Shown here piece after piece: positions 72 to 43,825 of a stretch of 64,000 bases of DNA; the stretch's first letter is position 1, and each line of letters starts with the position of its first letter. A model generated the notes under the pieces. That model searched no databases and was not told where the DNA came from. It saw nothing but the letters and a program-made list of their open reading frames with translations. Both the position numbers and the translations under genes were made by a program. Source of the DNA: an uncultured Apibacter sp. (GTDB lineage Bacteria; Bacteroidota; Bacteroidia; Flavobacteriales; Weeksellaceae); NCBI GenBank assembly GCA_945280365.1, contig CALYQD010000002.1:124001-188000 (forward strand), in the 5' to 3' direction.

Positions 72-2270
72 ATGCAGCAAAAAATTAAACACATAGTATC
101 GGAAAGTACTTTTTTTATTCTCGGCTTTTATTTCAGCCGTGGATTGCGTATAGCTGTAGCTATAGTTATTCCGTTGATTGCCGGTTGGCTTTTTAATAGA
201 CCGGGTATTGGTATAGTTGCTTCTTCAGGAGCTTTGGTTGCCGGTTTGGGAGATAATCCCGGATCGATACGTGTTAAATTTAACACACAATCCATTGCTG
301 CTTTATTTTATTTTTTAGTAGTCCTCGTCAGCCAATTATTGATTTCCCACAAAGTTATTTTCGGTATATGGATTACTTTATGCGGCTTTTTCTTTTCCAT
401 GTTTTTTATATACGGTTCTCGGGCTGTAAGTGTAAGCATATCTTCCTTGCTATGTGTGGTATATGCTTGTAGTTTTGAGGGCAATCACATTGTAATGAAC
501 ACATTGGGAATGATGCTGGGTGTACTTTTATATGGGCTTATTTCTTTAGTTTTATGGAGAATTCAACCGTATAGGGTTATTGAACAAAAAATAAGTGAAA
601 ATATTAGATATTTATACGAGTATACTGTACTTATTCATGAATATTTCCTTATAAAGTTAAAAAATCCTACAAATATTCAGAAACAAACCGAAGTATTAAA
701 TAAATTATTTGAAAAACAGGAAAAAATACATATTAATCATGAAGATATTCGAGAAAACCTTTTTAAATTAAGAATAAATGCAAAAAGCTTTTCTGCAAAA
801 GGAAGAAAGATGACTTTGATATTCAGCGCCTTAATTGATTTATATGAACAGCTGATATCATTAAATCTTCAAGACAATAAATTAATTGACTCTCTTATTA
901 AAAGTAATTTAAAAAAGGATTTTGAATATCATTTATCTAATATGGAACATATTCTTTATGAATTAAGTTGGTCCATAAATTTACATAAAAATGTTTCAGT
1001 TTCTATAGATATTTCTCAATTAGATTACTTTAAAAATCGTATAATTGATCTTGAAAATAATAAAAATGAAGATGCTAATATTGATATTAATGCATTGAAG
1101 CATGTTCGCTTTATATTTAAATCTTTTTATAAACAGACGGGATTCATAAAATCCCTTATAAATGGTGAATTCAGAACCGAGAAAAAGCAATATGAAGACT
1201 TAGATTTAGAAAAGTTTACCAGACAATACAATTATAATTTTTCAACTTTTAAGGCTAATTTGAATCTAAAATCAAATATCTTTAAACATGCTTTAAGAGT
1301 AAGTTTAGCGATTTCCGTTTCATATATTATTTGTACTTTACTGAAAATTGAATATTATGCATGGGTATTTTTAACCATAATTTTGATTTTAAAACCCGTA
1401 TATGGAAATACTAAAAATTCATGTATCCAAAGACTACAAGGAACCATAATTGGAGGGCTCATTACTTTCAGTTTACTACTTATTACTCACAACATTTATG
1501 TTATTTGTGTAGTTACATTTATATGTATAGTAGGTGCGTATAGCTTTATTCCTATCAATTATAGAACTGGAGTTGCTTTTGTTACTATATTTGTTATACT
1601 TCTGATTTTTTTAGAGCATAGCGGAAGCGACAGCTGGACCAATATTTATCATCGTTTGGGAGGAACAACCATTGCAGTAGTAATTAGCTTTATAGTAAGC
1701 TTCTCCTTTCTTCCCACCTGGGAGTATAAAAATCTTCCTGTTTTAATTGATAAATTACTTAAATCTAATTTAGATTATTTTAATAAAATAACCTATAATT
1801 TATTGAATGATGATAAACTTTCTGATACAGAAATAAAGCTATCCAGGAGAGATGTTTTGCTTGAAACATCCAACTTATCCAGTGCTTTTCAAAGAATTAT
1901 TTCTGAGCCCAAAATCTCAAAAAATTACAAATCCGATATTTATAATATTCAAACATTTATTAATCTTCTTTCTACAAGAATTTCTTCACTTAGATCCTAT
2001 ATCAACCAGAATAGTTTAGCTACGGAAATTGATTCTCAATTAATATTTTCAGTTGAAAATAACTTAAATAACTGTTTATTGAACATTGAGGGTACTTTAG
2101 TTAATTGTGACATTGAATGTATAGAGAAAGAAGAAGAATTAAATCTTTTGGCGGAAAATCAATCATTAATTACTTATCAGCTTCGGGAAATTAGCGTTTT
2201 ATCTCAACAAATTTATTCATATATAAATAAGCTAAACAATTTCGAGGAATGGAAAAGCTCTAAAATTTAA
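72..2270 (+). CDS. FUSC family (YccS-like) inner-membrane protein
   Basis: Predicted integral membrane protein of the FUSC/YccS type, a family linked to aromatic-acid or toxic-compound export; the substrate cannot be read from sequence. The 732 residues show the two-repeat architecture of the family: a hydrophobic block at about residues 12-165, a charged helical region to about 400, a second membrane block at about 405-550 containing the FUSC-like stretch LKPVYGNTKNSCIQRLQGT, and a cytoplasmic tail. The ATG at 72 is used. Its last four bases overlap the end of the convergent yqaA-like gene, so the two 3' ends have no terminator space between them. Family assignment is firm; function is not. 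Confidence 0.85.
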   Translation: MQQKIKHIVSESTFFILGFYFSRGLRIAVAIVIPLIAGWLFNRPGIGIVASSGALVAGLGDNPGSIRVKFNTQSIAALFYFLVVLVSQLLISHKVIFGIWITLCGFFFSMFFIYGSRAVSVSISSLLCVVYACSFEGNHIVMNTLGMMLGVLLYGLISLVLWRIQPYRVIEQKISENIRYLYEYTVLIHEYFLIKLKNPTNIQKQTEVLNKLFEKQEKIHINHEDIRENLFKLRINAKSFSAKGRKMTLIFSALIDLYEQLISLNLQDNKLIDSLIKSNLKKDFEYHLSNMEHILYELSWSINLHKNVSVSIDISQLDYFKNRIIDLENNKNEDANIDINALKHVRFIFKSFYKQTGFIKSLINGEFRTEKKQYEDLDLEKFTRQYNYNFSTFKANLNLKSNIFKHALRVSLAISVSYIICTLLKIEYYAWVFLTIILILKPVYGNTKNSCIQRLQGTIIGGLITFSLLLITHNIYVICVVTFICIVGAYSFIPINYRTGVAFVTIFVILLIFLEHSGSDSWTNIYHRLGGTTIAVVISFIVSFSFLPTWEYKNLPVLIDKLLKSNLDYFNKITYNLLNDDKLSDTEIKLSRRDVLLETSNLSSAFQRIISEPKISKNYKSDIYNIQTFINLLSTRISSLRSYINQNSLATEIDSQLIFSVENNLNNCLLNIEGTLVNCDIECIEKEEELNLLAENQSLITYQLREISVLSQQIYSYINKLNNFEEWKSSKI

Positions 2271-2719
2271 AAAAAACTAGTAAAACTTTTAAAGGTATAC
2301 ATAATAATAACATACCGAAATAATTTACCTGCTAACATGGAGATAGAGACCATATAAATATTTGCTCTCGTATATCCCAAAGCAACCGGAATAACATCTC
2401 CAATTACTGGTAAAAAAGAAAAAAAAGAAATATATGCTCCTTTTTTATTTAGTTTATGAGATACAGTATCTATCTTATCCTTTCTGATTTTTAAATATTT
2501 TTCGATCCATTCTATTTTGCCTAGCCTTCCTAAATAATAACTGGTCATTCCTCCTAACCAATTTCCGATGGCGGCAATTATAATACTTATCCAAGGAGTT
2601 CCTCCCATAAGAAGTATACCGGTAAGGACAGCCTCTGAACTAAACGGTAAAATTGTAGCAGCAAGATAAGAAGCTACAAATAATCCTATATATCCATACT
2701 CTATTAACGCATCTAACAT
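2267..2719 (-). CDS. YqaA/DedA-family membrane protein
   Basis: Small (150 aa) polytopic membrane protein of the DedA/SNARE-associated (VTT) superfamily, YqaA branch. Evidence: hydrophobic segments throughout, the N-terminal GLFVASYLAATILPFSSEA and the glycine-rich NWLGGMTSYYLGRLGK typical of YqaA proteins, and the conserved SFLPVIGDVIPVALG re-entrant-type segment. DedA-superfamily proteins act in membrane lipid translocation and envelope homeostasis. It lies 10 bp downstream of plsC and is probably the last gene of a manA-plsC-yqaA transcript, consistent with a phospholipid-related role (inference). Confidence 0.85.
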   Translation of the reverse strand: MLDALIEYGYIGLFVASYLAATILPFSSEAVLTGILLMGGTPWISIIIAAIGNWLGGMTSYYLGRLGKIEWIEKYLKIRKDKIDTVSHKLNKKGAYISFFSFLPVIGDVIPVALGYTRANIYMVSISMLAGKLFRYVIIMYTFKSFTSFF

Positions 2720-2729
2720 ATAGAATTAT

Positions 2730-3479
2730 TTATCTAATATTTGCATGGTTTATCTTATCATCTTTAATTCTTTCATAAATTAGATGATAAGCTTCTTCTT
2801 TGAGGTCCTGTTTGGTTCCCCCTTCCGGAAATAGAATTTTAATTCGTTCTACTTTAACTTTACCCGGATATCCTAAATTAAAGACAAAAGGAAACATATT
2901 CTTAAGGTTATGAAATACGTACACAACTATCGGACTGTTACAATAAACGGAAGATATGAAGGCTCCATCTTTAAATTTTTCTAAAATTATTTTACGCTTT
3001 GGAACCCCTCCTTCCGGAAAAATAACAACATTTCTATTATTTTGGGTCAATTCTTTTTTTACAGCTGAGAATACGGCTTGCTTACTTTGATTATTTGATC
3101 TGTCTACTAGGATAGATACCTTTTTATAAATTCTACCAAATACAGGATATTTTTCCAGCTCTTTTTTACCAACAAACACTATGGGATGTTTCGGATGAAG
3201 CACATACATTAACACCACGTCAATTAAAGAAGTATGATTGGCTATAAAAATATAATTTTCATTTGGGTCTAAATTCACTTTCGAATATAAAGAATATGTA
3301 AATCCTGATCCGTAAAAAATCACACATCCCCACATACGCATAAAGAAATAAGTAAGCTTATTATTATTCTGATAAGACATCAGATAAATTATAACTCCAA
3401 CAGTAAGTGTACATAGGGCTGTTAAAATATAAAACCATACTTTCCAAAGAATTGTTGCTACTGTCTTGAGATATTTCAT
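2730..3479 (-). CDS. plsC: 1-acyl-sn-glycerol-3-phosphate acyltransferase
   Basis: Transfers an acyl chain to lysophosphatidic acid to give phosphatidic acid at the inner membrane. The 249 aa protein has an N-terminal membrane anchor (about residues 11-35), the catalytic HX4D motif NHTSLID (His82, Asp87), the VDRSN block (about 125-129) and the FPEGG block (154-158), in the order and spacing of PlsC/LPAAT enzymes. It lies 2 bp downstream of manA and 10 bp upstream of the yqaA-like gene. A related lyso-ornithine or other lysolipid acyltransferase cannot be excluded, but the motif set fits PlsC. Confidence 0.88.
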   Translation of the reverse strand: MKYLKTVATILWKVWFYILTALCTLTVGVIIYLMSYQNNNKLTYFFMRMWGCVIFYGSGFTYSLYSKVNLDPNENYIFIANHTSLIDVVLMYVLHPKHPIVFVGKKELEKYPVFGRIYKKVSILVDRSNNQSKQAVFSAVKKELTQNNRNVVIFPEGGVPKRKIILEKFKDGAFISSVYCNSPIVVYVFHNLKNMFPFVFNLGYPGKVKVERIKILFPEGGTKQDLKEEAYHLIYERIKDDKINHANIR

Positions 3480-3481
3480 AT

Positions 3482-4447
3482 TTAATCTATATGAACCTCT
3501 AAAAGTTTCGTTTTAACATGAGGCTTTATTTCTATATTTGATAAGGCTGCCGGAAGCAATACTGTATGTCCTTTAGTAATAATAACAGGTATATTTTGAT
3601 TCAAAATTGAACATTCTCCTTCAATACAAATGAGTATTCGAAAGGAATTCCCCGAAGAAAAAAGGATTTTATTTTCTGTAATTTCCATTTTAGAAACCGT
3701 AAAAAACGGTGAAGTAACAATTGTTGCTTCTTCCGAATTTTTATCATATTGCAAAAAAGGCTCATCAACAAAAGAAAAATCCATTACATCCTCTGCTTGT
3801 TTGATATGTAAATCTCTTTTTTTTCCGTTTTTATCGATCCTATCGTAATCGTATATCCTATAAGTTACATCCGAATTTTGCTGTATTTCAATTACCGACA
3901 CTCCTTTATCTAAAGCATGAACAGTTCCGGAAGGAATAAAAATTACATTTTCTTTTTCCGGATGTACTTTTCTTAGAATTGAATGTAACGTGTTGTTTTC
4001 AATGCTTTCTTCAAAAATACTTTTATTTATCCCTTTTTCAAACCCTAGTATAATTTCAGAATCAGGCTCAGAGTCCAATACATACCACATTTCTGTTTTT
4101 CCAAATGAATGATGATGAACTTCGGCATACTCATCGTTAGGATGCACTTGAACGGATAAGGGCTGAGCAGCATCTAGAAACTTAATAAGAAGGGGAAACC
4201 TATTCCCATATTTCCGATATATTTTTTTCCCTACAAGCTGTTCTTTGTACTCTTTAATTAAATCATCTAAATCTTTTCCTTTCAAAATTCCATTAGAAAC
4301 TATACTTACTGATCCCGGAACTGTAGATATTTCCCAACTTTCTCCTATATTTTCTTCTGTTATATTTTTTCCGAGATTTTTTAATTTATTCCCACCCCAT
4401 ATTCTATAATGGAAAGAAGGCTGAAATAGCAATGGATATAATGACAT
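3482..4447 (-). CDS. manA: mannose-6-phosphate isomerase, class I
   Basis: Zinc enzyme interconverting fructose-6-phosphate and mannose-6-phosphate, supplying mannose for glycan synthesis or mannose for glycolysis. The 321 aa length is that of the short bacterial type I enzyme. Metal-site motifs are visible: QVHPND, the glutamate in GKTEMWYVL, and the histidine in FIPSGTVHAL, followed by the cupin C-terminal half with QQNSDVTYRIYDYDR. It heads a tight operon with plsC (2-bp gap). The polysaccharide genes 40 kb away could use its product (inference). Confidence 0.93.
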   Translation of the reverse strand: MSLYPLLFQPSFHYRIWGGNKLKNLGKNITEENIGESWEISTVPGSVSIVSNGILKGKDLDDLIKEYKEQLVGKKIYRKYGNRFPLLIKFLDAAQPLSVQVHPNDEYAEVHHHSFGKTEMWYVLDSEPDSEIILGFEKGINKSIFEESIENNTLHSILRKVHPEKENVIFIPSGTVHALDKGVSVIEIQQNSDVTYRIYDYDRIDKNGKKRDLHIKQAEDVMDFSFVDEPFLQYDKNSEEATIVTSPFFTVSKMEITENKILFSSGNSFRILICIEGECSILNQNIPVIITKGHTVLLPAALSNIEIKPHVKTKLLEVHID

Positions 4448-4506
4448 ATATAGATTTATTTATGCAAAAATATGATTTTTTAAATTTTTATTTATTAGCA
4501 CTTTAG

Positions 4507-5214
4507 TTATGTAAGCAAAAAATTGAAATCTTCTGAAGAATCCAATTCTCTTATGGGCTGATTATGTATAAATATTCTTGCAGTTTTTTCACCAATAAGT
4601 CTTAGTTTTTTATTTTCATAATGTAGTATTGTACCTTCTCTGAGCCCTACTACATATACATTAGGATTTAAATGTATAAATTCCATGATACGTTGCTCTC
4701 GTGTTTCTCCACCAAAATCAGAAGGGTGGACATCCAAATAATGTGGATTTATCTGAAAAGGTATTAGATTTAGAGTTTGAAAATTTTCCGGCTCAATAAT
4801 AGGCATGTCATTAGTTGTTCGTAATGTTGGACATACAATGTTAGATCCTGCACTCCATCCTATATATGGAGTTCCCATACTTACTTTTTCACGTATAAGA
4901 GATAATATTTTTTTTTGTTGTAATTTTTTTACCAACTGCCATGTATTTCCTCCACCTACCACTATTACATCAGCATTTTTTACGGCTTCTTCAACATTCG
5001 AAAAATGATGTATACTTTGCACTTTTATATGTATTGATTTCCAGGCTTCATTTACTTTATTTTCATATTCATCATAGGAAAACGTTACGGCTGCATAAGG
5101 AATAAATAGAATATTTGATTTTTCATCCTCTAAAAATGACTGGACTTGATATTTGGAAAACTCAAGATATCTCTCCCCCACATTAGTGGAATTGCTTAGT
5201 AATAAAAGCTTCAT
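4507..5214 (-). CDS. pepE: peptidase E (alpha-aspartyl dipeptidase), S51
   Basis: Cytoplasmic serine dipeptidase that cleaves Asp-X dipeptides. The 235 aa product shows the S51 nucleophile elbow GWSAGSN with Ser121, the upstream VVGGGNTWQL oxyanion-region motif, and a histidine at about 158 (NPHYLD) where the catalytic His is expected. The Salmonella enzyme uses Ser120 and His157. It is a single gene followed by a roughly 60-bp gap before manA, so it may share that transcript. Confidence 0.92.
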   Translation of the reverse strand: MKLLLLSNSTNVGERYLEFSKYQVQSFLEDEKSNILFIPYAAVTFSYDEYENKVNEAWKSIHIKVQSIHHFSNVEEAVKNADVIVVGGGNTWQLVKKLQQKKILSLIREKVSMGTPYIGWSAGSNIVCPTLRTTNDMPIIEPENFQTLNLIPFQINPHYLDVHPSDFGGETREQRIMEFIHLNPNVYVVGLREGTILHYENKKLRLIGEKTARIFIHNQPIRELDSSEDFNFLLT

Positions 5215-5483
5215 AATTCTTTTATTTATATATTAATCATTAATAAAAAGAGTAATTCATTCTAATAATAATTTGGAAGAAATTACCATTGAAAAGCTAT
5301 TATCGGTAATTTTATAAATAGAATAAATTAATTAACTTTTCTTCCCCCAAATATAGCTAAAAATTAATTATACTTCATTATAATTGCTTTAAACCTAAGC
5401 AATAAGAAAATTTCCTTACAATATAATCATTTCATTTTCATTACTTTTAAGTAAAAATCATTTTATAAATTTAAATTTATATA

Positions 5484-5491
5484 TATTTTTG
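5484..5491 (+). promoter_or_regulatory. candidate -7 promoter element for the SUKH gene
   Basis: TATTTTTG matches the Bacteroidota -7 consensus TAnnTTTG and ends 15 nt before the ATG at 5507. No convincing TTG -33 element is seen at the usual 17-23 nt spacing. In DNA this AT-rich such matches arise by chance, so confidence is moderate. Confidence 0.4.
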
Positions 5492-5506
5492 AATAAATTT
5501 ATGTAA

Positions 5507-6136
5507 ATGCATACTATTAACTCTTTGGCTGAACGATTGCTAGGCAGAAGCTTAACTAAAAATGACGGAGTAAAACCTTCTGAACTTGACAAGATTGAAA
5601 TTAAGTTAGGAACTACTTTACCTAATATTTTACGTGATTTGTATCTGTTGGTCGGAAAAAATAATATGCTGATGGAATCTTTTAATCGATTTGCTTTACC
5701 CAGCCAACTACAGAAAGATGGAAACAAAATAGTATTTCTGGAGGAAAATCAAAATATATGCTATTGGGGGTTTGAAATTGATCAAGAAAATGTTAATCCG
5801 AAAGTTTATCAATTATTAAATGAAAATGAATGGTTTGAGGAACAAATTCCTCTTATTGAATTTATAATTGTTATGCTCTATTATCAATGTGCACAGGGAG
5901 GATATGAATTTTTTGGAATTTCCAATATTTCTGATGAAGATCTTGAGATTTTTATTCATACTGAATGGGAAGATGCCGTTAGATACAACGGATTACAAAT
6001 TTATTGGAAGCAAGATTGCTTATTATGGTATGTATATGATCATAACAATGTCAGAGTCAATAATCTGTATTTTTCTGCAAGAACGGAAGAAGCTTTTACC
6101 ATTCATAGCCAAAAATACGAACTTGAAAGTTTATAA
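5507..6136 (+). CDS. SMI1/KNR4 (SUKH) family protein
   Basis: 209 aa soluble protein with the SUKH/SMI1-KNR4 fold signature: an N-terminal helix that recognises the family (SELDKIEIKLGTTLPNILRDLYLLVG), followed by the strand motif NKIVFLEENQNICYWGFEI with the tryptophan typical of the group. SUKH proteins are frequently immunity proteins against secreted polymorphic toxins, though others have general roles. No toxin, Rhs or LXG gene lies beside it, so here it is an orphan. A separate ATG-TAA just upstream at 5501 argues for the ATG at 5507. The overlapping ORF at 5868-6149 is a shadow. Confidence 0.8.
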   Translation: MHTINSLAERLLGRSLTKNDGVKPSELDKIEIKLGTTLPNILRDLYLLVGKNNMLMESFNRFALPSQLQKDGNKIVFLEENQNICYWGFEIDQENVNPKVYQLLNENEWFEEQIPLIEFIIVMLYYQCAQGGYEFFGISNISDEDLEIFIHTEWEDAVRYNGLQIYWKQDCLLWYVYDHNNVRVNNLYFSARTEEAFTIHSQKYELESL

Positions 6137-6397
6137 CCGTTATCTTTAATAATAGCTGTTTAATGTAAGAATTTTATCAATATTATTTATCTATTGATCT
6201 GATTTTGTTTCCTCTAATAATACAACTAAAAAATTATTTTTTTCAACAAACACAAACAAGATAATATAATTTCAAAATTACTAAAAAATTAGCAATTTAA
6301 ATCCATACATATAATTAACAATGTAATAATTTAATTTATTTTTTGAAATTTTATTAATTTTAAACCTAAGAGTAATATTATTTTAAAAAAGTAATTA

Positions 6398-7291
6398 ATG
6401 GCAGTAAAAATAATAAACCAACAAAATTTTAAGTGGATAGACTTATTTAACCCTTCTAAAGAGGAGATGCAAGAAATTGCAGAAAAATGCAATCTTAATT
6501 TCTATAACCTTGCGGATAGTTTAGAACCTAATCACCTACCAAAATTTGAAACTGAAAACGGAGTTAATTTCCTCATATTAAGAGTTGTACATAAAGGAGA
6601 AAAAAAAGATACAAATATTGAAAGTCTATCTAACAAAATTGCCATTTTTTTTAATGAATCTTTAATCATTACTATACATCGTATAGAAATGCCTTTTATT
6701 GATGAGATTGTCACCAAATGTTTAAATAAAGAGGAAACTATATCGACCAATATGGTCATTATTAAAATTTTAAAATGTGTTTTACAAACCTATAATGACT
6801 CCATTTTACATATTATAAACAGATTAGAATCCTATGAAAATAAACTTTTTTTAAAAAGTCCTAATTCAAGAGTATTGCAGAACATCTATTCTTTAAAAAG
6901 AAAAACAAATCTATGCACCAAATTATTGATCCTTTCAGATGAAGTTATTAACTCAGTTAAGCCTACTAAACAAGAAAAAGCGGCTCATCAAGATGCGAAA
7001 GACTTGTATTTAAAACTTACCACTCTTTATGAGCAGGTGATGGATGATCTGAATAATTTGCTTAATCTTTATATTTCTCTTTCTTCTCAAAAAACCAATG
7101 AGATTATGAAGACTTTGACCATATTCTCCATATTTTTTATGCCGTTAACTTTTATAGCCGGTATCTATGGTATGAATTTTCATTTTATGCCTGAGCTCGA
7201 TTATAAATGGGGTTATCCGATCATAATATTTATTATGTTTATTATTACGTTAATTATTTATTATTGGTTGAAAAGAAAAAAATGGCTTTGA
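6398..7291 (+). CDS. corA: CorA-family Mg2+/Co2+ transporter
   Basis: Divalent cation channel of the inner membrane. The 297 aa protein has the long N-terminal cytoplasmic domain, a helical stalk (about residues 140-235) and two C-terminal transmembrane segments. The signature GMN motif (YGMNFHFMPE, residues 258-260) closes TM1, and a basic tail KRKKWL ends the protein. Length and layout are those of a standard CorA. Zinc-transporting ZntB-type relatives have the same motif, so the ion is not proven. Confidence 0.9.
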   Translation: MAVKIINQQNFKWIDLFNPSKEEMQEIAEKCNLNFYNLADSLEPNHLPKFETENGVNFLILRVVHKGEKKDTNIESLSNKIAIFFNESLIITIHRIEMPFIDEIVTKCLNKEETISTNMVIIKILKCVLQTYNDSILHIINRLESYENKLFLKSPNSRVLQNIYSLKRKTNLCTKLLILSDEVINSVKPTKQEKAAHQDAKDLYLKLTTLYEQVMDDLNNLLNLYISLSSQKTNEIMKTLTIFSIFFMPLTFIAGIYGMNFHFMPELDYKWGYPIIIFIMFIITLIIYYWLKRKKWL

Positions 7292-7438
7292 ATAAAATAT
7301 TCTAATTAAATAAATTCATATTACTGATTGAAAAGTTGTTTTCAAAAGATATCTAAATAAGACATGTAAAAAGTTCAACCTTAAAATTAATTATTTTTGA
7401 TATTGTTAGATTTCATCTTTTATTCAAGATATAATAAT

Positions 7439-37748: not shown

Positions 37749-38888
37749 TTAATGATCATGCTCAGACTCTATCTCGCCGGATTGGAGATAGTATACTCCT
37801 TTTATCACCAATTCTTGCTGAGAATTGAAATTTAAAATCTCTATGAAATCATCATTTGATCTTCCTATTTTTATTTCTTTTCGTTCTACATGATTTCCTT
37901 TTTTTATAAAAATATATGATTTTTCGTCCTCTTCGAATACAGCCTCTTTAGGTACTGTTAGCACATCTTTAGATTTATTGATTATATAAGCATTTACAAA
38001 TCTTTTCTCATAAAAATCAGTTGGTGGTAATTTCGTTTGAATATCTGCATGAACCTGTATGGTATTATTTTCGGTATTCGTTACTTTTCCTATAATATGA
38101 ATTTTACTTTTAATTAAAGTTTCAATTTCAGGTAGAGTAAATTCTACAGCTTGCCCTACATATAAAGATGAGGCATATTTGGACGGAACGTTTAATTCAA
38201 CATGCAATTTATCTTGATTTATTATCAAGAAAAGTTCATCGGCGGTACTTATTTGCTTACCGGGAGAAATTTCTTCTGCTTGTACATATCCACTTATAGG
38301 ACTTAATATTTTTAATTCCGGATTAATTTTACCTGTCTTGATTATAAAATTTGGCATAAACCCTAATAAGTGTAGTTCTGATCTCAAGCTTTCATATTCT
38401 GCAGTTGAGACTTGATAGGCAGCTAGAGATTGTTCGTAAGATTTTTTACTGGTTGCATCTCCTTCTAATAATGTCTTTTTTCGCTGGTAATCTTTGTATG
38501 CTAAATTCATCGTATAATAACTTTCTAAAAATTGTTTTTGCAATGTTATAAATGAAGGGTTATTTATAGTTGCTAATTCTTGCCCTTTATGTACATAATC
38601 TCCGGTAATAAAATTTATTTTCTCAATAAATCCATCTATTTTACTGTGGATGGATGCTTTATTTTCTGGAAGAGCATGTATAATACCAGTAACCATTATT
38701 TTTGATTCAATGGAACGCAACTCTGCTTTGCCGAATTCTATCCCATTAGTTTTGATCATCTCATCGTTTAAAGTTATTTTGGAATGCTCTTGGATATCTT
38801 CTTGATAGTGCTCTTTATTTTTTGAGGAACATGAATAACAAAGTATTGTTACAGTGTAAAATATATTTATGTATGTTGATATTTTCAT
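37749..38888 (-). CDS. RND efflux periplasmic adaptor lipoprotein (CusB/CzcB-like)
   Basis: 379 aa membrane-fusion protein linking an inner-membrane RND pump to an outer-membrane channel. It begins with a lipoprotein-type signal (TILCYSCSS), then the barrel-sandwich half-motif ASIHSKIDGFIEKINFITGDYVHKGQELATI, an alpha-helical hairpin (about residues 115-170), the second half-motif KILSPISGYVQAEEISPGKQIS, and a beta-barrel plus membrane-proximal domain ending in an acidic/His tail ESEHDH. It lies 10 bp downstream of the pump gene. A heavy-metal substrate is inferred from the pump. Confidence 0.9.
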   Translation of the reverse strand: MKISTYINIFYTVTILCYSCSSKNKEHYQEDIQEHSKITLNDEMIKTNGIEFGKAELRSIESKIMVTGIIHALPENKASIHSKIDGFIEKINFITGDYVHKGQELATINNPSFITLQKQFLESYYTMNLAYKDYQRKKTLLEGDATSKKSYEQSLAAYQVSTAEYESLRSELHLLGFMPNFIIKTGKINPELKILSPISGYVQAEEISPGKQISTADELFLIINQDKLHVELNVPSKYASSLYVGQAVEFTLPEIETLIKSKIHIIGKVTNTENNTIQVHADIQTKLPPTDFYEKRFVNAYIINKSKDVLTVPKEAVFEEDEKSYIFIKKGNHVERKEIKIGRSNDDFIEILNFNSQQELVIKGVYYLQSGEIESEHDH

Positions 38889-38898
38889 GATCGATAAA

Positions 38899-41800
38899 TT
38901 AATTTTGTTGGGTTAAATAGTTAAGTTCAATCAGAGTTTGATTATAGGTATTTACTAAATCCAAATAGGTATTTTGCGACTCTAAAGAGGATCTTAATAT
39001 GCTGCAATATTGCAGGTAGTCAATTTCTCCGTAACGATATTTTATGTCTGCTATTCCGATCATTTTTTTTGAATCTTCGAGATGGGAAGTTCCAAATATG
39101 TTTAATTCATTATTAATCAGTTTCTGCTGCTCTTTTAGCTGCTTTATCCTTAAGTTTATACTTCGTTTGGTTTGTTCTTTCTGATATTCGACATTTTTAT
39201 TTTCCAGTAAGGTTTGTTCTTTCAGCTTTTTATAATCATTATTAAATAAGGGGATGTTTACGCTAACTACTCCTGCATAGTAGCTGTAATTATTTTCTAT
39301 GCTTTGCATCAATCCTCCAATGGATAGTTCCGGTAATCTTTTGGATTTTTCCCAAGCTAACATTTTATTGTTGCGCTCCTTTTCTTTTTCAAATTCATAC
39401 AAATATTTATAATTTATACTGTCTGAAATAGAATTATTCTGCATTTGGTGGAATCTCTCCAACGGCTCTAATTTTTCATTCGCATTTATTCCACATAAGT
39501 TATATATATTATTTTCAATGTTTATATTTTCTTGTTCATTTATGATCTTTTGCTGTATTATTTGTTCCAACTCTGCCTTAAAAAATTGTTTTTCCATATA
39601 ATCTGTTTCTCCTTTTTCATAACTAAACTGAGCCTTTTTTAGTCCTTCTTTATATAAGGAATCCATTTGGGTAAATAATTTTCTTTTTTCAATAAGGTAA
39701 ACCCATTGGTTATATAGTTGTTCGAGCTGAAAAATTATTATGTGTTTTTGTAAGGAAGATTTTGCCGTTAACCATTCTACGCGACTATCCATAAAATTCT
39801 TCTTTTTTCCATATGAAAATAGATTTCCAAAATCTTGGCCGATTTCCCATTGATAATCTGATTCTCTACTGTTAAATTGCCCATATCCTACCTTCATTGA
39901 AGTCGAATTGAGCGAATAAGCATATTTCTTTTCCAATTTTTCTTTTTGAATCTGTAATTCTCTATTTTTCAATTCAATATTTTCTTTATAAGCCAGATCT
40001 ATAAGATTGGAAAGCGATACTTTTGTTTGAGCTTTTCCTGAATATATGCATCCTAAAAAAATTACTATCGAAATGATTATTTTAGGATTTATCTTCTTTT
40101 TAAACCTCTTATTTTCTAAAATGTAATATAAGGCCGGGACTATTAATAAAGTTAATAAGGTAGATGTAAACAACCCTCCTATTACTACGGTAGCTAAAGG
40201 TCTTTGTACTTCAGCACCATTAGATGTTGATAAAGCCATAGGAAAAAAGCCTAGGGTAGCCACCATTGCAGTCATAAACACAGGTCGTAATCGATTTCCC
40301 CCCCCTACTTTTATTATTTCCTGAAGAGAAGTATATTTACCTGAATTTTTTAAATAATTTAACTCACTTACCAAAACTATTCCGTTTAGAACGGCAACGC
40401 CGAAAAGGGCTATAAAACCAACGCCTGCCGAAATACTAAAAGGCAACCCTCTTATCCACAACGCAATAATCCCTCCAATCGATGCTAAAGGGACTGCTGA
40501 AAAAATCAATAACGCATCTTTAATACTCTTAAAAGTTATATATAAGAGTAAGAGTATTATGGATAAAGCAATAGGAATTGCAATACTCAGTCGTGAAGAG
40601 GCTTCTTTAAGATTTTTAAATGCTCCTCCATATTCAATTCTATAACCTGGAGGCAATTTGATGGCGGTGTTTAACCTTGATTGAATATCTTGAACTAAGG
40701 ATGTTATGTCTGCCCCACGAACATTTATTCCAATATTTATTTTTCTTTGCGCCTGTTCTCTTGAAATTAGCATAGGGCCGGTCTCATACTTTACGGATGC
40801 AACTTCAGAAACTGGAATTAGATTTTTAGTAGCAGTACGTACATGTAATTGTTCTAAACTCAAATTTTTTCTATATTTTTCATCTAAACGTATTACTAAA
40901 TCGAAACGTCGTTCTCCTTCTACAATAGTCCCTGCTTTTAATCCCGCCACTGAAGATTGTATGATTAGATTTAACGTGTTTACGTCTAATCCATATTGGG
41001 CTAATTTGTTACGATCATAGGTAATTTCCATTTGCTTGAGACCTTCTGTTTGTTCTACTTTTACATCTGATGCTCCTTCTATTTTTTTTATTATTTGAGA
41101 AGCTCGATCTGCTATTTTTTTTAATTCTACTGCATCTTCTCCGAATATTTTAATGACAATATCCGCTTTTGCTCCTGTCATTAATTCATTAAATCTTAAC
41201 TGTATGGGCTGAGAAAATTCAAATGAAGCCCCTAGCACTGATGACAGCTTATCTTTGATTTTATTAGCCAATTCTTCTTGTGTTTGAGCTGAAACCCATT
41301 TATCTTTTTCTTTTAAAATAATCATGATATCTGAATCTTCTATTCCCATAGGATCGGTAGGAACTTCGGCGGTTCCTATTTTTGATATCACATGAATAAC
41401 TTCTGGAAAATTATTTTTTATAATTTTTTCTATTTTATTGGTAGTCTTAATACTTTCCTCTAAGGAACTCCCGGGCTGAATGCTCATTTGCATAGCTATG
41501 TTTCCTTCTTGTAAGGTGGGAACAAACTCAGCCCCCATATTTTTGAAAATAAATATGGAAAAAAGCCAAATTATTAGGACTACACCTACTACTTTATAAG
41601 GTATTTTTAATACTTTCTCCAATATAGGGAGATAAACTGATTTTAGTTTATCCATAATTTTATCTGCATAAGTTATTTTATATACAATATCTTTTTTAAT
41701 AAAAAGTGTTGTCATTACAGGTACATAGGTTAAGGAAAGCAGTAGTGCTCCAAGTATAGCAAAACTTACAGCCATAGCCATAGGCCTAAACATTTTGCCT

Positions 41801-43206
41801 TCAATTCCCGTTAAAGACATTACCGGAATAAAAACCAATATGATTATCAGAATTCCAAATGCTGCCGATTTATAAATTTCTCCTGTAGTTTTACCTACAA
41901 TTCCATCTAATTGTTTTTGGGTGATATTTTTTCCTAAGTATTTTGTATGCAAGACATAAATAACAGATTCTACAATAATAATAGCGCCGTCTACAACAAT
42001 ACCAAAATCTATTGCTCCTAAAGACAGCAAATTGGCAGACACTCCAAAAATGTTCATCATTATTAAGGCAAATAATAAGGAAAGTGGTATGATTGAGGCT
42101 ACGATAAGACCTGCTCTTATATTTCCCAATAAAATAATCACAACAAAAATTACTATTATTCCGCCTTCAATTAAATTTTTTTTAACTGTTGAAATAGTTT
42201 TTTCAATGAGATGGGATCTATCTAGATATATATATATATCTAAACCTTCAGGTAAGGTGGTCTTAACTTGATTAATCCTTTCTTTTACGTTTCGGACAGT
42301 CTTATAGGAATTTTCTCCTTTCAACATTAAAGTTATTCCTCCAACCACTTCTCCTTTTCCGTCCATGGTCATTGCTCCGAATCTTTGGGCGGATGCATAG
42401 GTTACTTCCGCTATATCTGATATTTTTATGGGAACTTGTTCCTTTACTGCTACTACTATATTTTTTATATCTTGAAGGTTTTTTAACATTCCGTTTGTTC
42501 TGATATAAAATAAATTGTGCTGTTTTTCAATATATCCTGATCCTGAATTCTGATTATTTTTTTCCAGCACATTATAAACTTCTTCTAAGGTAATTCCATA
42601 GCTTTGTAATACAATAGGATCAATTCCTACTTCATATTCTTTTACTTTTCCTCCGAAACTTGAAATTTCAATGATACCCTCAATTCCATTAAGCTGTTTT
42701 TTTATTATCCAATCCTGAATTGTTCGTAAATCTTCCAAAGTGTAATCCGATTCAAAACCAGGCTTAACTTTAATTACATATTGACAAATCTCTCCTAGCC
42801 CTGTAGTTATAGGCATTAGTTGTGGTTCACCTATTCCGTTAGGAATTTCATTTTTAGTGATATCTATTTGTTCTTTTACTAATTGTCTTGCTCGTAGTAC
42901 TGGAATATTTTCTTTAAATACTACAGTTATTATGGATAAGCCAAATCTTGATATAGATCTTACTTCAATCGCTCCAGGTATATTCCTTAATTCTGATTCC
43001 AGAGGTATGGTTATTAATTGCTCGACTTCTTGTGGGGCTAATGTGGGAGAGGTAGTAACTACCTGTACTTGATTATTGGTAATGTCGGGAGTAGCGTCTA
43101 TAGGTATGGTCTGTATCGAATACAAACCACCTGTTAGTAAAGCTACTACACCAATGGCTACCCATAATTTATATTTTATTGATAACTCAATTATAGCTTG
43201 AAACAT
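38899..43206 (-). CDS. CusA/CzcA heavy-metal RND pump fused to a TolC-like outer-membrane factor
   Basis: One 1435-codon frame encodes two proteins of a tripartite metal exporter. Residues 1 to about 1035 are a complete HME-RND pump: 12 transmembrane segments, TIPIDATPDITNNQVQV near the N-terminus, and the TM4 proton-relay motif DFGIVVDGAIIIVE, which matches the divalent-cation type (DFGx3DGAx3VE). A basic plus hydrophobic segment, RFKKKINPKIIISIVIFLGCIYSGKAQ, follows at about 1034-1060 and looks like a signal peptide. Residues 1061-1435 are a TolC-family outer-membrane factor (SLSNLIDLAYKENIELKNRELQIQ, then coiled-coil repeats, LSIGGLMQ). Similar long CusA proteins occur in other Bacteroidota. 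Likely substrates Zn, Co, Ni or Cd; Cu/Ag less likely. Confidence 0.92.
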   Translation of the reverse strand: MFQAIIELSIKYKLWVAIGVVALLTGGLYSIQTIPIDATPDITNNQVQVVTTSPTLAPQEVEQLITIPLESELRNIPGAIEVRSISRFGLSIITVVFKENIPVLRARQLVKEQIDITKNEIPNGIGEPQLMPITTGLGEICQYVIKVKPGFESDYTLEDLRTIQDWIIKKQLNGIEGIIEISSFGGKVKEYEVGIDPIVLQSYGITLEEVYNVLEKNNQNSGSGYIEKQHNLFYIRTNGMLKNLQDIKNIVVAVKEQVPIKISDIAEVTYASAQRFGAMTMDGKGEVVGGITLMLKGENSYKTVRNVKERINQVKTTLPEGLDIYIYLDRSHLIEKTISTVKKNLIEGGIIVIFVVIILLGNIRAGLIVASIIPLSLLFALIMMNIFGVSANLLSLGAIDFGIVVDGAIIIVESVIYVLHTKYLGKNITQKQLDGIVGKTTGEIYKSAAFGILIIILVFIPVMSLTGIEGKMFRPMAMAVSFAILGALLLSLTYVPVMTTLFIKKDIVYKITYADKIMDKLKSVYLPILEKVLKIPYKVVGVVLIIWLFSIFIFKNMGAEFVPTLQEGNIAMQMSIQPGSSLEESIKTTNKIEKIIKNNFPEVIHVISKIGTAEVPTDPMGIEDSDIMIILKEKDKWVSAQTQEELANKIKDKLSSVLGASFEFSQPIQLRFNELMTGAKADIVIKIFGEDAVELKKIADRASQIIKKIEGASDVKVEQTEGLKQMEITYDRNKLAQYGLDVNTLNLIIQSSVAGLKAGTIVEGERRFDLVIRLDEKYRKNLSLEQLHVRTATKNLIPVSEVASVKYETGPMLISREQAQRKINIGINVRGADITSLVQDIQSRLNTAIKLPPGYRIEYGGAFKNLKEASSRLSIAIPIALSIILLLLYITFKSIKDALLIFSAVPLASIGGIIALWIRGLPFSISAGVGFIALFGVAVLNGIVLVSELNYLKNSGKYTSLQEIIKVGGGNRLRPVFMTAMVATLGFFPMALSTSNGAEVQRPLATVVIGGLFTSTLLTLLIVPALYYILENKRFKKKINPKIIISIVIFLGCIYSGKAQTKVSLSNLIDLAYKENIELKNRELQIQKEKLEKKYAYSLNSTSMKVGYGQFNSRESDYQWEIGQDFGNLFSYGKKKNFMDSRVEWLTAKSSLQKHIIIFQLEQLYNQWVYLIEKRKLFTQMDSLYKEGLKKAQFSYEKGETDYMEKQFFKAELEQIIQQKIINEQENINIENNIYNLCGINANEKLEPLERFHQMQNNSISDSINYKYLYEFEKEKERNNKMLAWEKSKRLPELSIGGLMQSIENNYSYYAGVVSVNIPLFNNDYKKLKEQTLLENKNVEYQKEQTKRSINLRIKQLKEQQKLINNELNIFGTSHLEDSKKMIGIADIKYRYGEIDYLQYCSILRSSLESQNTYLDLVNTYNQTLIELNYLTQQN

Positions 43207-43420: not shown

Positions 43421-43825
43421 CTAAATAAATGTAAAAGGAGGAGCCCTTAAAGGATTTTCTAACTGATTTTCAGTTGAAGTATTTGAAAAGGTATAATAAT
43501 GTTTTACATGTTTTTTTTCCGGATTTTTTAAACAAAAGTTAACGTTTAAAAAAAAATCGGGATTTATAAAAATGAGTTTTTGAAAAATTTCATAGTCTGT
43601 AGTGGATAATTTGAATTCATCCAAATTATTTTCCCCTAGATCGATGTGTTTAATAAGATCCTCAAGCTGATTAAATATATTTGAAGATTGATTTTCTTCT
43701 GAATCAACAAAAATACAGTTATGAAGCGTAAATTCAAACTCAACCTTATGCTGATGCGGCACAAAGGCATGCACTACAATTAATAATGTAGCAAATATTA
43801 TTGATATTTCCCTTATTAATTTCAA
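43421..43825 (-). CDS. small exported His-containing protein heading the metal-efflux operon
   Basis: 134 aa protein with an N-terminal signal-peptide-like segment (KLIREISIIFATLLIVVHAFV) followed by PHQHK, two cysteines, and a C-terminal ENPLRAPPF motif. Small proteins of this look, with histidines just after the signal peptide, often precede CusA-type pumps in Bacteroidota. A periplasmic metal-binding or sensing role is inference. It must start at a TTG: an in-frame TAA lies immediately upstream and no early ATG exists. 214 bp separate it from the pump gene, so cotranscription is likely but not certain. Confidence 0.7.
   Translation of the reverse strand: MKLIREISIIFATLLIVVHAFVPHQHKVEFEFTLHNCIFVDSEENQSSNIFNQLEDLIKHIDLGENNLDEFKLSTTDYEIFQKLIFINPDFFLNVNFCLKNPEKKHVKHYYTFSNTSTENQLENPLRAPPFTFI

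What the first reader, a model, noticed from the sequence alone, without database searches (positions are those of the whole stretch)
38899..43206. Metal pump and outer-membrane channel in one ORF, joined by an apparent internal signal peptide
Seen: the 1435-codon frame contains a full HME-RND pump followed at about residues 1034-1060 by a basic then hydrophobic stretch ending SGKAQ and then a complete TolC-like protein (1061-1435). AQ is the usual end of signal peptides in this window. Inference: the segment is exported after TM12 and cut by signal peptidase (or, at FLGC, by the lipoprotein peptidase, since CusC-type factors are lipoproteins), releasing the outer-membrane factor. That would make one polyprotein give fixed pump:channel output. 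Long CusA proteins are known in Bacteroidota; I do not know of a demonstration that the joint is processed.
Basis: partly seen in the sequence, partly recalled or inferred. Interest (0 to 1): 0.65.

Follow-up and report, generated by a model that had tools for sequence, protein, structure and literature searches.

The report
Self-splitting metal pump and channel
One long bacterial gene encodes both the inner-membrane pump and the outer-membrane exit channel of a metal-export machine, joined by a signal peptide that comparison of over 100 relatives indicates is cut, so one polyprotein should give the two parts in equal numbers; the gene layout is common in this phylum, but the cutting appears not to have been shown or described.

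Summary
Confirmed, with the strand added. On the minus strand, 38899-43206 encodes 1435 aa: a complete CusA/CzcA-type RND pump (1-1038), a basic-hydrophobic junction, and a complete TolC/CusC-type channel (mature part 1060-1435). The fusion is not a local oddity. It occurs across Bacteroidota (Flavobacteriales, Bacteroidales, Cytophagales, Sphingobacteriales, Chitinophagales). In plasmids, all 37 fused records out of 3745 with a match are Bacteroidota. In 106 of 111 fused relatives the junction ends in a signal-peptidase-I motif followed by Gln. In a thinned alignment Gln is kept in 88 of 91, the ninth most conserved column, inside an otherwise hypervariable segment; the -1 residue is always small. 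Bacteroidota type-I signal peptides typically expose exactly such a Gln for pyroglutamate formation, so it is useful only if the joint is cut. Close relatives encode the same channel as a separate gene whose signal peptide aligns with the junction. The lipoprotein alternative fails: the Cys is not conserved. An uncut joint leaves about 10 residues to bridge a gap of order 100 Å. Processing is strongly inferred but not shown experimentally; I found no paper describing it. New variant of a known kind.

The parts
38899..43206 (-). whole gene: 1435-codon pump-channel polyprotein plus stop
   Evidence: intact in same-genus relatives at 68-78% identity
40093..43206 (-). residues 1-1038: HME-RND (CusA/CzcA family) proton-driven pump
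   Evidence: TIGR00914 1117 bits, ACR_tran 884 bits; nearest solved structures ZneA and CusA
40030..40107 (-). residues 1034-1059: internal type-I signal peptide (basic region, hydrophobic core 1041-1054, GKA end)
   Evidence: homologous to N-terminal signal peptides of separate channel genes
40027..40032 (-). predicted signal peptidase I site A1059|Q1060; Q1060 would become pyroglutamate
   Evidence: Q in 88 of 91 and A/S/G/T at -1 in 92 of 92 aligned sequences
38902..40029 (-). residues 1060-1435: mature outer membrane factor (TolC/CusC/OprM type channel protomer)
   Evidence: OEP; profile match to SilC, OprM, CusC, TolC; AF2 model and Foldseek
37749..38888 (-). periplasmic adaptor (CusB/CzcB-type MFP), starting 10 nt after the fused gene; probable lipoprotein (CYSC)
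   Evidence: HlyD_D23 98.6 bits, TIGR01730 139.9 bits; a >330-aa ORF follows within 400 nt in 98 of 107 fused loci
43421..43825 (-). small upstream ORF, 134 aa with a hydrophobic start and HAFVPHQH motif; probably part of the same metal operon, function unknown
   Evidence: no family match; similar PHxH proteins upstream in L008, L009, L037, L038, L045, L048

Best explanation
The gene encodes a polyprotein. The 12-TM metal pump inserts with its C-terminus in the cytoplasm. The basic linker stays inside, and the following short hydrophobic segment re-enters the Sec translocon as an internal type-I signal peptide and carries the channel half into the periplasm. Signal peptidase I cuts A1059|Q1060, and glutaminyl cyclase caps Q1060 as pyroglutamate. 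The released channel protomer trimerises in the outer membrane and, with the separately encoded adaptor, docks on the trimer of the same pump. Each translation yields one pump and one channel protomer, the 3:3 ratio that a tripartite pump needs. The pump keeps the signal helix as a C-terminal stub, or loses it to later trimming. Shown here by sequence: the architecture, the conserved cut site, and its homology to ordinary signal peptides. Inferred: export, the cut, pyroglutamate formation and the equal ratio.
For: (1) 106 of 111 fused relatives have the -3/-1/Q+1 motif after the junction core; of the five others, four end MKSQ, MQAQ, MNAQ or MYSQ and one FAFA|ET; the rate is 55 of 887 at other hydrophobic peaks in the same pumps. 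(2) In 93 aligned C-terminal halves (own plus 92 relatives thinned to below about 72% pairwise identity) Q is in 88 of 91, the ninth most conserved column, and -1 is small in 92 of 92, although most columns around it vary or carry gaps. (3) The Q-rule: most Bacteroidota SPI substrates expose Gln, which QC cyclises, 77% in P. gingivalis (PMC5837995, PMC10653852); window SPI substrates (BamA-like, two OmpH-like, a small OM-like protein, a TonB receptor) also have Q, as do 26 of 28 separate channels of relatives. (4) Split sisters: L136 MKTSISTIFLLLISSFSLAQNAQ against fused KKMSNPIVTILVLLISSFSFAQNSQ (L046), channel 81% identical; L091 against L086, 78%. Split pumps end without the hydrophobic segment, so the pump does not need it. 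(5) Fused and split forms interleave on the pump tree: 10 or 11 changes, reduced to about 8 once truncated or frameshifted cases are set aside. (6) Geometry: about 10 residues lie between the signal helix and channel helix H1, while H1 sits at the equatorial domain halfway up a ~100 A periplasmic barrel (PMC8277102) that itself stands on adaptor and pump. (7) LepB- and M28-type genes, candidates for the cutting and cyclising enzymes, are in the genome.
Against: No direct proof: no N-terminal sequence, blot or proteomic peptide was available, and SignalP could not be run. The own site has Lys at -2 and the core is slightly longer than in separate channels (median uncharged stretch to the cut 19 against 16 residues), so cleavage could be slow or partial. 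All conservation evidence is comparative.
Confidence: 0.88

Rival explanations
1. The segment is a permanent thirteenth TM helix and the channel works, or is stored, while tethered to the pump.
For: No experiment excludes it; the segment is hydrophobic enough to span or nearly span the membrane (best 19-residue Kyte-Doolittle median 1.66 against 1.93 for TM1).
Against: A tether gives no role to the conserved A|Q. AF2 gives a helix of only 14 residues followed by coil. About 10 residues cannot bridge the inner membrane to the equatorial domain. Split pumps lack the helix.
Confidence: 0.06
2. The channel half is made separately by internal translation initiation at the buried start codon of the former channel gene, so full-length protein is a by-product.
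For: 57 of 111 relatives keep an in-frame ATG between TM12 and the core, and 85 of 111 an ATG, GTG or TTG, some reading as the old start (KKMSNPIV in L046, KGRKKMKTPIV in L105).
Against: The window gene has none of ATG, GTG or TTG in the stretch from the end of TM12 through Q1060, and 26 of 111 relatives have none between TM12 and the core. It could add to processing in some relatives but cannot be the general mechanism.
Confidence: 0.03
3. The junction is cut by lipoprotein signal peptidase at FLGC1053, giving a CusC-like lipoprotein channel.
For: FLGC resembles a lipobox; E. coli-type CusC/OprM channels are lipoproteins.
Against: Lipobox-like motif in 3 of 111; same-genus relatives have FLGS, LLGS, FIGG or FCGS; separate channels of relatives: 0 of 28 lipobox, 26 of 28 Q-rule.
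Confidence: 0.02
4. The fusion is an assembly artefact or a decaying gene.
For: None beyond its unusual length.
Against: Intact in seven same-genus genomes (own included) and across the phylum; annotated as single CDS on complete plasmids.
Confidence: 0.01

Closest known systems
CusCBA / CzcCBA / ZneCAB heavy-metal tripartite efflux (HME-RND, TIGR00914)
   Same: Pump half full-length and clearly in the family; adaptor gene next door; channel half has the OMF fold
   Different: Pump and channel are one reading frame; the channel is not a lipoprotein; the CusA Met triad (M573, M623, M672) aligns to Gln, Asp and Glu, so a divalent ion is likelier than Cu+/Ag+ (read from the alignment)
[quoted passage not shown]
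   Same: Basic region, short core, small -1, Gln +1
   Different: The signal is internal, after 12 TM helices; the two papers do not mention efflux, RND or CusA
FbcH cytochrome b/c1 polyprotein of Bradyrhizobium japonicum (from my own knowledge; no paper in the library)
   Same: Polytopic membrane protein fused to an exported partner through an internal signal peptide cut by signal peptidase
   Different: Unrelated respiratory proteins; the partner stays in the inner membrane instead of moving to the outer membrane; not a phylum-wide family
Separate pump-channel-adaptor operons of the same subfamily (e.g. L136, L091, L020; Hymenobacter sp. BRD128 plasmid)
   Same: Same gene order; 76-81% identical channels in the nearest pairs; the signal peptide aligns with the junction
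   Different: Two genes, 11-200 nt apart or overlapping (4 nt in L021, 37 nt in BRD128)

Membership tests
HME-RND (CusA/CzcA, TIGR00914) | score over curated cut-off across the full model | tested here: met
   1117.5 against 701.45 bits, model 1-1043 of 1051
HME-RND (CusA/CzcA, TIGR00914) | metal transport | not testable with these tools
   needs a transport or resistance assay; Met triad of CusA not conserved
Outer membrane factor (OEP, PF02321) | OEP match and two-repeat alpha-barrel/beta-strand fold | tested here: met
   56.9 bits against 22; Foldseek E 1.2e-15 to TOprJ1, 7.9e-15 to CusC
CusC/OprM-type lipoprotein channel | conserved lipobox Cys at the mature N-terminus | tested here: not met
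   3 of 111 fused relatives
Bacteroidetes Q-rule SPI substrate | small residue at -1 and Gln at +1 after a basic-hydrophobic segment | tested here: met
   GKA|Q; 92 of 92 small at -1, 88 of 91 Q at +1
Bacteroidetes Q-rule SPI substrate | actual cleavage and pyroglutamate N-terminus | not testable with these tools
   needs N-terminal mass spectrometry
Signal-peptidase-processed bacterial polyprotein (FbcH-like) | two separately functioning proteins in one frame with an internal signal peptide | tested here: met
   domains and junction; the same channel is a free-standing gene in sisters
Signal-peptidase-processed bacterial polyprotein (FbcH-like) | processing demonstrated | not testable with these tools
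   no proteomic data

The most novel reading that the evidence does not exclude
A phylum-wide natural bacterial polyprotein: signal peptidase I cuts a pump-channel precursor in two, delivering inner- and outer-membrane parts of one nanomachine in exact 1:1 stoichiometry and coupling synthesis of a dedicated channel to its own pump, with the pump left carrying a signal-peptide stub as a thirteenth helix.
Probability: 0.82. Interest if true: 0.66.

Novelty: new variant of a known kind. Interest (0 to 1): 0.56.

Why it matters
Cellular bacterial polyproteins matured by signal peptidase are rare; this would be a large family, found across a whole phylum. It offers a simple route to fixed 3:3 stoichiometry in a machine spanning both membranes. 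It would also make the common annotation of these ~1450-aa proteins as single CusA/CzcA transporters incomplete: the outer-membrane channel is hidden in the entry, so channel counts, proteome localisation and the reading of apparently two-gene metal operons are skewed.

Tried and rejected
Lipoprotein cut at FLGC: rejected. Solved structure of a fused protein: none, the longest matching RND chains listed are about 1070 aa. Single-sequence PDB search with the channel half: no hit, profile needed. Literature searches for RND-OMF fusions and reading of the likely papers found no description; the tripartite-pump review is held only in part (first 300,000 characters). FbcH is not in the library. A 1490-aa frame in G008 suggested a second fusion but is a separate 1054-aa pump frame. 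L039, L050 and L090 counted as split or unknown in the tree but are truncated, cut off or frameshifted. Direction of fusion and fission cannot be settled: the sample was drawn with a fused query and the tree is unrooted.

Full report
WHAT IS THERE. The reported frame is real but lies on the minus strand. The 1435-aa product begins with a complete heavy-metal RND pump: TIGR00914 1117 bits over residues 1-1038, ACR_tran 884 bits over 5-1030; nearest solved relatives are ZneA and CusA. It ends with a complete outer membrane factor: OEP 56.9 bits; a profile of 93 sequences matches SilC, OprM, CusC and TolC. AlphaFold2 gives mean pLDDT 92.8 with the OMF pattern of two beta hairpins and two very long helices, and Foldseek matches solved OMFs at up to E 1.2e-15. 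Between them lies LENKRFKKKINPKIIISIVIFLGCIYSGKA|QTKVSL. The model makes residues 1041-1054 a 14-residue helix with lower confidence, followed by coil, and channel helix H1 starts at 1065 (construct residue 1 is protein residue 1022). The adaptor gene follows 10 nt downstream. No other channel gene lies among the ORFs around the operon.

HOW COMMON. The fused form is intact in seven of the nine same-genus genomes searched, own included (68-78% identity to the window protein), and in many other Flavobacteriales. In an even draw of 396 Bacteroidota genomes, 157 have a match at E below 1e-250, and all but about a dozen of the matches listed lie in open frames of 1430 aa or more. Named hits include Alistipes, Parabacteroides, Bacteroides, Pontibacter, Spirosoma, Pedobacter, Chitinophaga, Chryseobacterium and Flavobacterium. 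In 72,556 plasmids, 3745 records have a pump match; the 37 in which one place covers 80% of the query or more are all Bacteroidota, and most of those with annotation carry a single CDS named CusA/CzcA transporter there. The architecture is therefore ordinary for the phylum and present in databases. I found no paper that describes it or its processing, within an open-access library only.

THE CUT SITE. Of 111 fused proteins, 106 carry small-x-small-Gln after the junction core, four more have Met at -3 with [A/S]Q, and one has FAFA|ET. The same motif follows 55 of 887 other hydrophobic peaks in the same pumps. In an alignment of the window's C-terminal half with 92 relatives thinned to below about 72% pairwise identity (mean column identity 33%), the Gln is in 88 of 91 and -1 is Ala, Ser, Gly or Thr in 92 of 92. 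That Gln is the ninth most conserved column of the whole half, although most columns around it vary or carry gaps. Known biology explains it. In Bacteroidota most signal peptidase I substrates expose Gln at +1, which an inner-membrane glutaminyl cyclase turns into pyroglutamate; in P. gingivalis 77% follow the rule and the enzyme is essential (PMC5837995, PMC10653852). Gln at that place is useful only after a cut. The window's own secreted proteins follow the rule, as do 26 of 28 separately encoded channels of relatives. LepB-type and M28-type genes are present in the genome; which M28 protein is the cyclase was not determined.

THE NATURAL EXPERIMENT. Several close relatives encode pump and channel as two adjacent genes. 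In L136 the separate channel starts MKTSISTIFLLLISSFSLAQNAQ; the fused relative L046 reads KKMSNPIVTILVLLISSFSFAQNSQ, with the two channels 81% identical. L091 (MKNNHKNITAVFILLFSFAGFGLKAQTPINL) and fused L086 (MKKHNHKNFAAVLILIFCIMGIGIKSQTPINL) are sisters, 78% identical. The junction is thus a former or future N-terminal signal peptide, and split pumps end before it, so it is not a working TM helix of the pump. On a pump tree the two states change 10 or 11 times, about 8 after discarding broken or cut-off loci. Repeated interchange suggests that both give the same finished parts. The sample is biased to fused forms and the tree is unrooted, so I do not claim a direction.

WHY NOT UNCUT. About 10 residues separate the signal helix from channel helix H1, at most some 35-40 A extended. 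H1 belongs to the equatorial domain in the middle of a periplasmic barrel of about 100 A (PMC8277102), and that barrel stands on adaptor and pump, themselves tens of A high (general knowledge). A tethered channel could not reach its place in the assembled pump.

REJECTED ALTERNATIVES. The lipoprotein cut at Cys1053 fails because the motif is in 3 of 111 and changes to Ser or Gly within the genus. Internal initiation fails because there is no ATG, GTG or TTG between TM12 and Q1060 in this gene, though 57 of 111 relatives retain an ATG there. Artefact or decay is excluded by the many intact copies.

WHAT REMAINS OPEN. The cut itself, pyroglutamate formation, the 1:1 output and the fate of the signal stub are inferred. 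The junction core is slightly longer than in free-standing channels (median 19 against 16 uncharged residues to the cut), so processing could be slower. The metal is unknown: the three Met of CusA align to Gln, Asp and Glu (read), which favours a divalent ion.

VERDICT. The architecture is common; the processed-polyprotein reading is strongly supported, apparently undescribed, and cheaply testable with existing proteomes.

Noticed in passing
43421-43825 (-): Small ORF (134 aa) with hydrophobic start and PHQH motif just upstream of the fused gene; similar PHxH proteins precede some fused relatives (L008, L009, L037, L038, L045, L048). Possibly a metal-binding accessory protein; no family match.
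   Followed up: partly
own genome contig C2:72706-77061 (L202), outside the window: A second HME-RND system with separate pump (1034-aa frame) and channel (429-aa frame) genes in the same genome, so both layouts coexist.
   Followed up: yes
L200 (Hymenobacter sp. BRD128 plasmid) 3001-7403: Pump and TolC-family CDSs overlap by 37 nt, an arrangement that looks intermediate between split and fused.
   Followed up: partly
L021 around 4679: Channel ORF starts 4 nt before the end of the pump ORF, suggesting translational coupling in a split relative.
   Followed up: no
2267-2719 (-): 150-aa membrane protein with a weak, below cut-off match to undecaprenyl phosphate transporter UptA (DedA-like).
   Followed up: no
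L051 (Candidatus Gallipaludibacter): The one fused junction read that lacks the Gln: FAFA|ET, still a plausible signal peptidase site.
   Followed up: no
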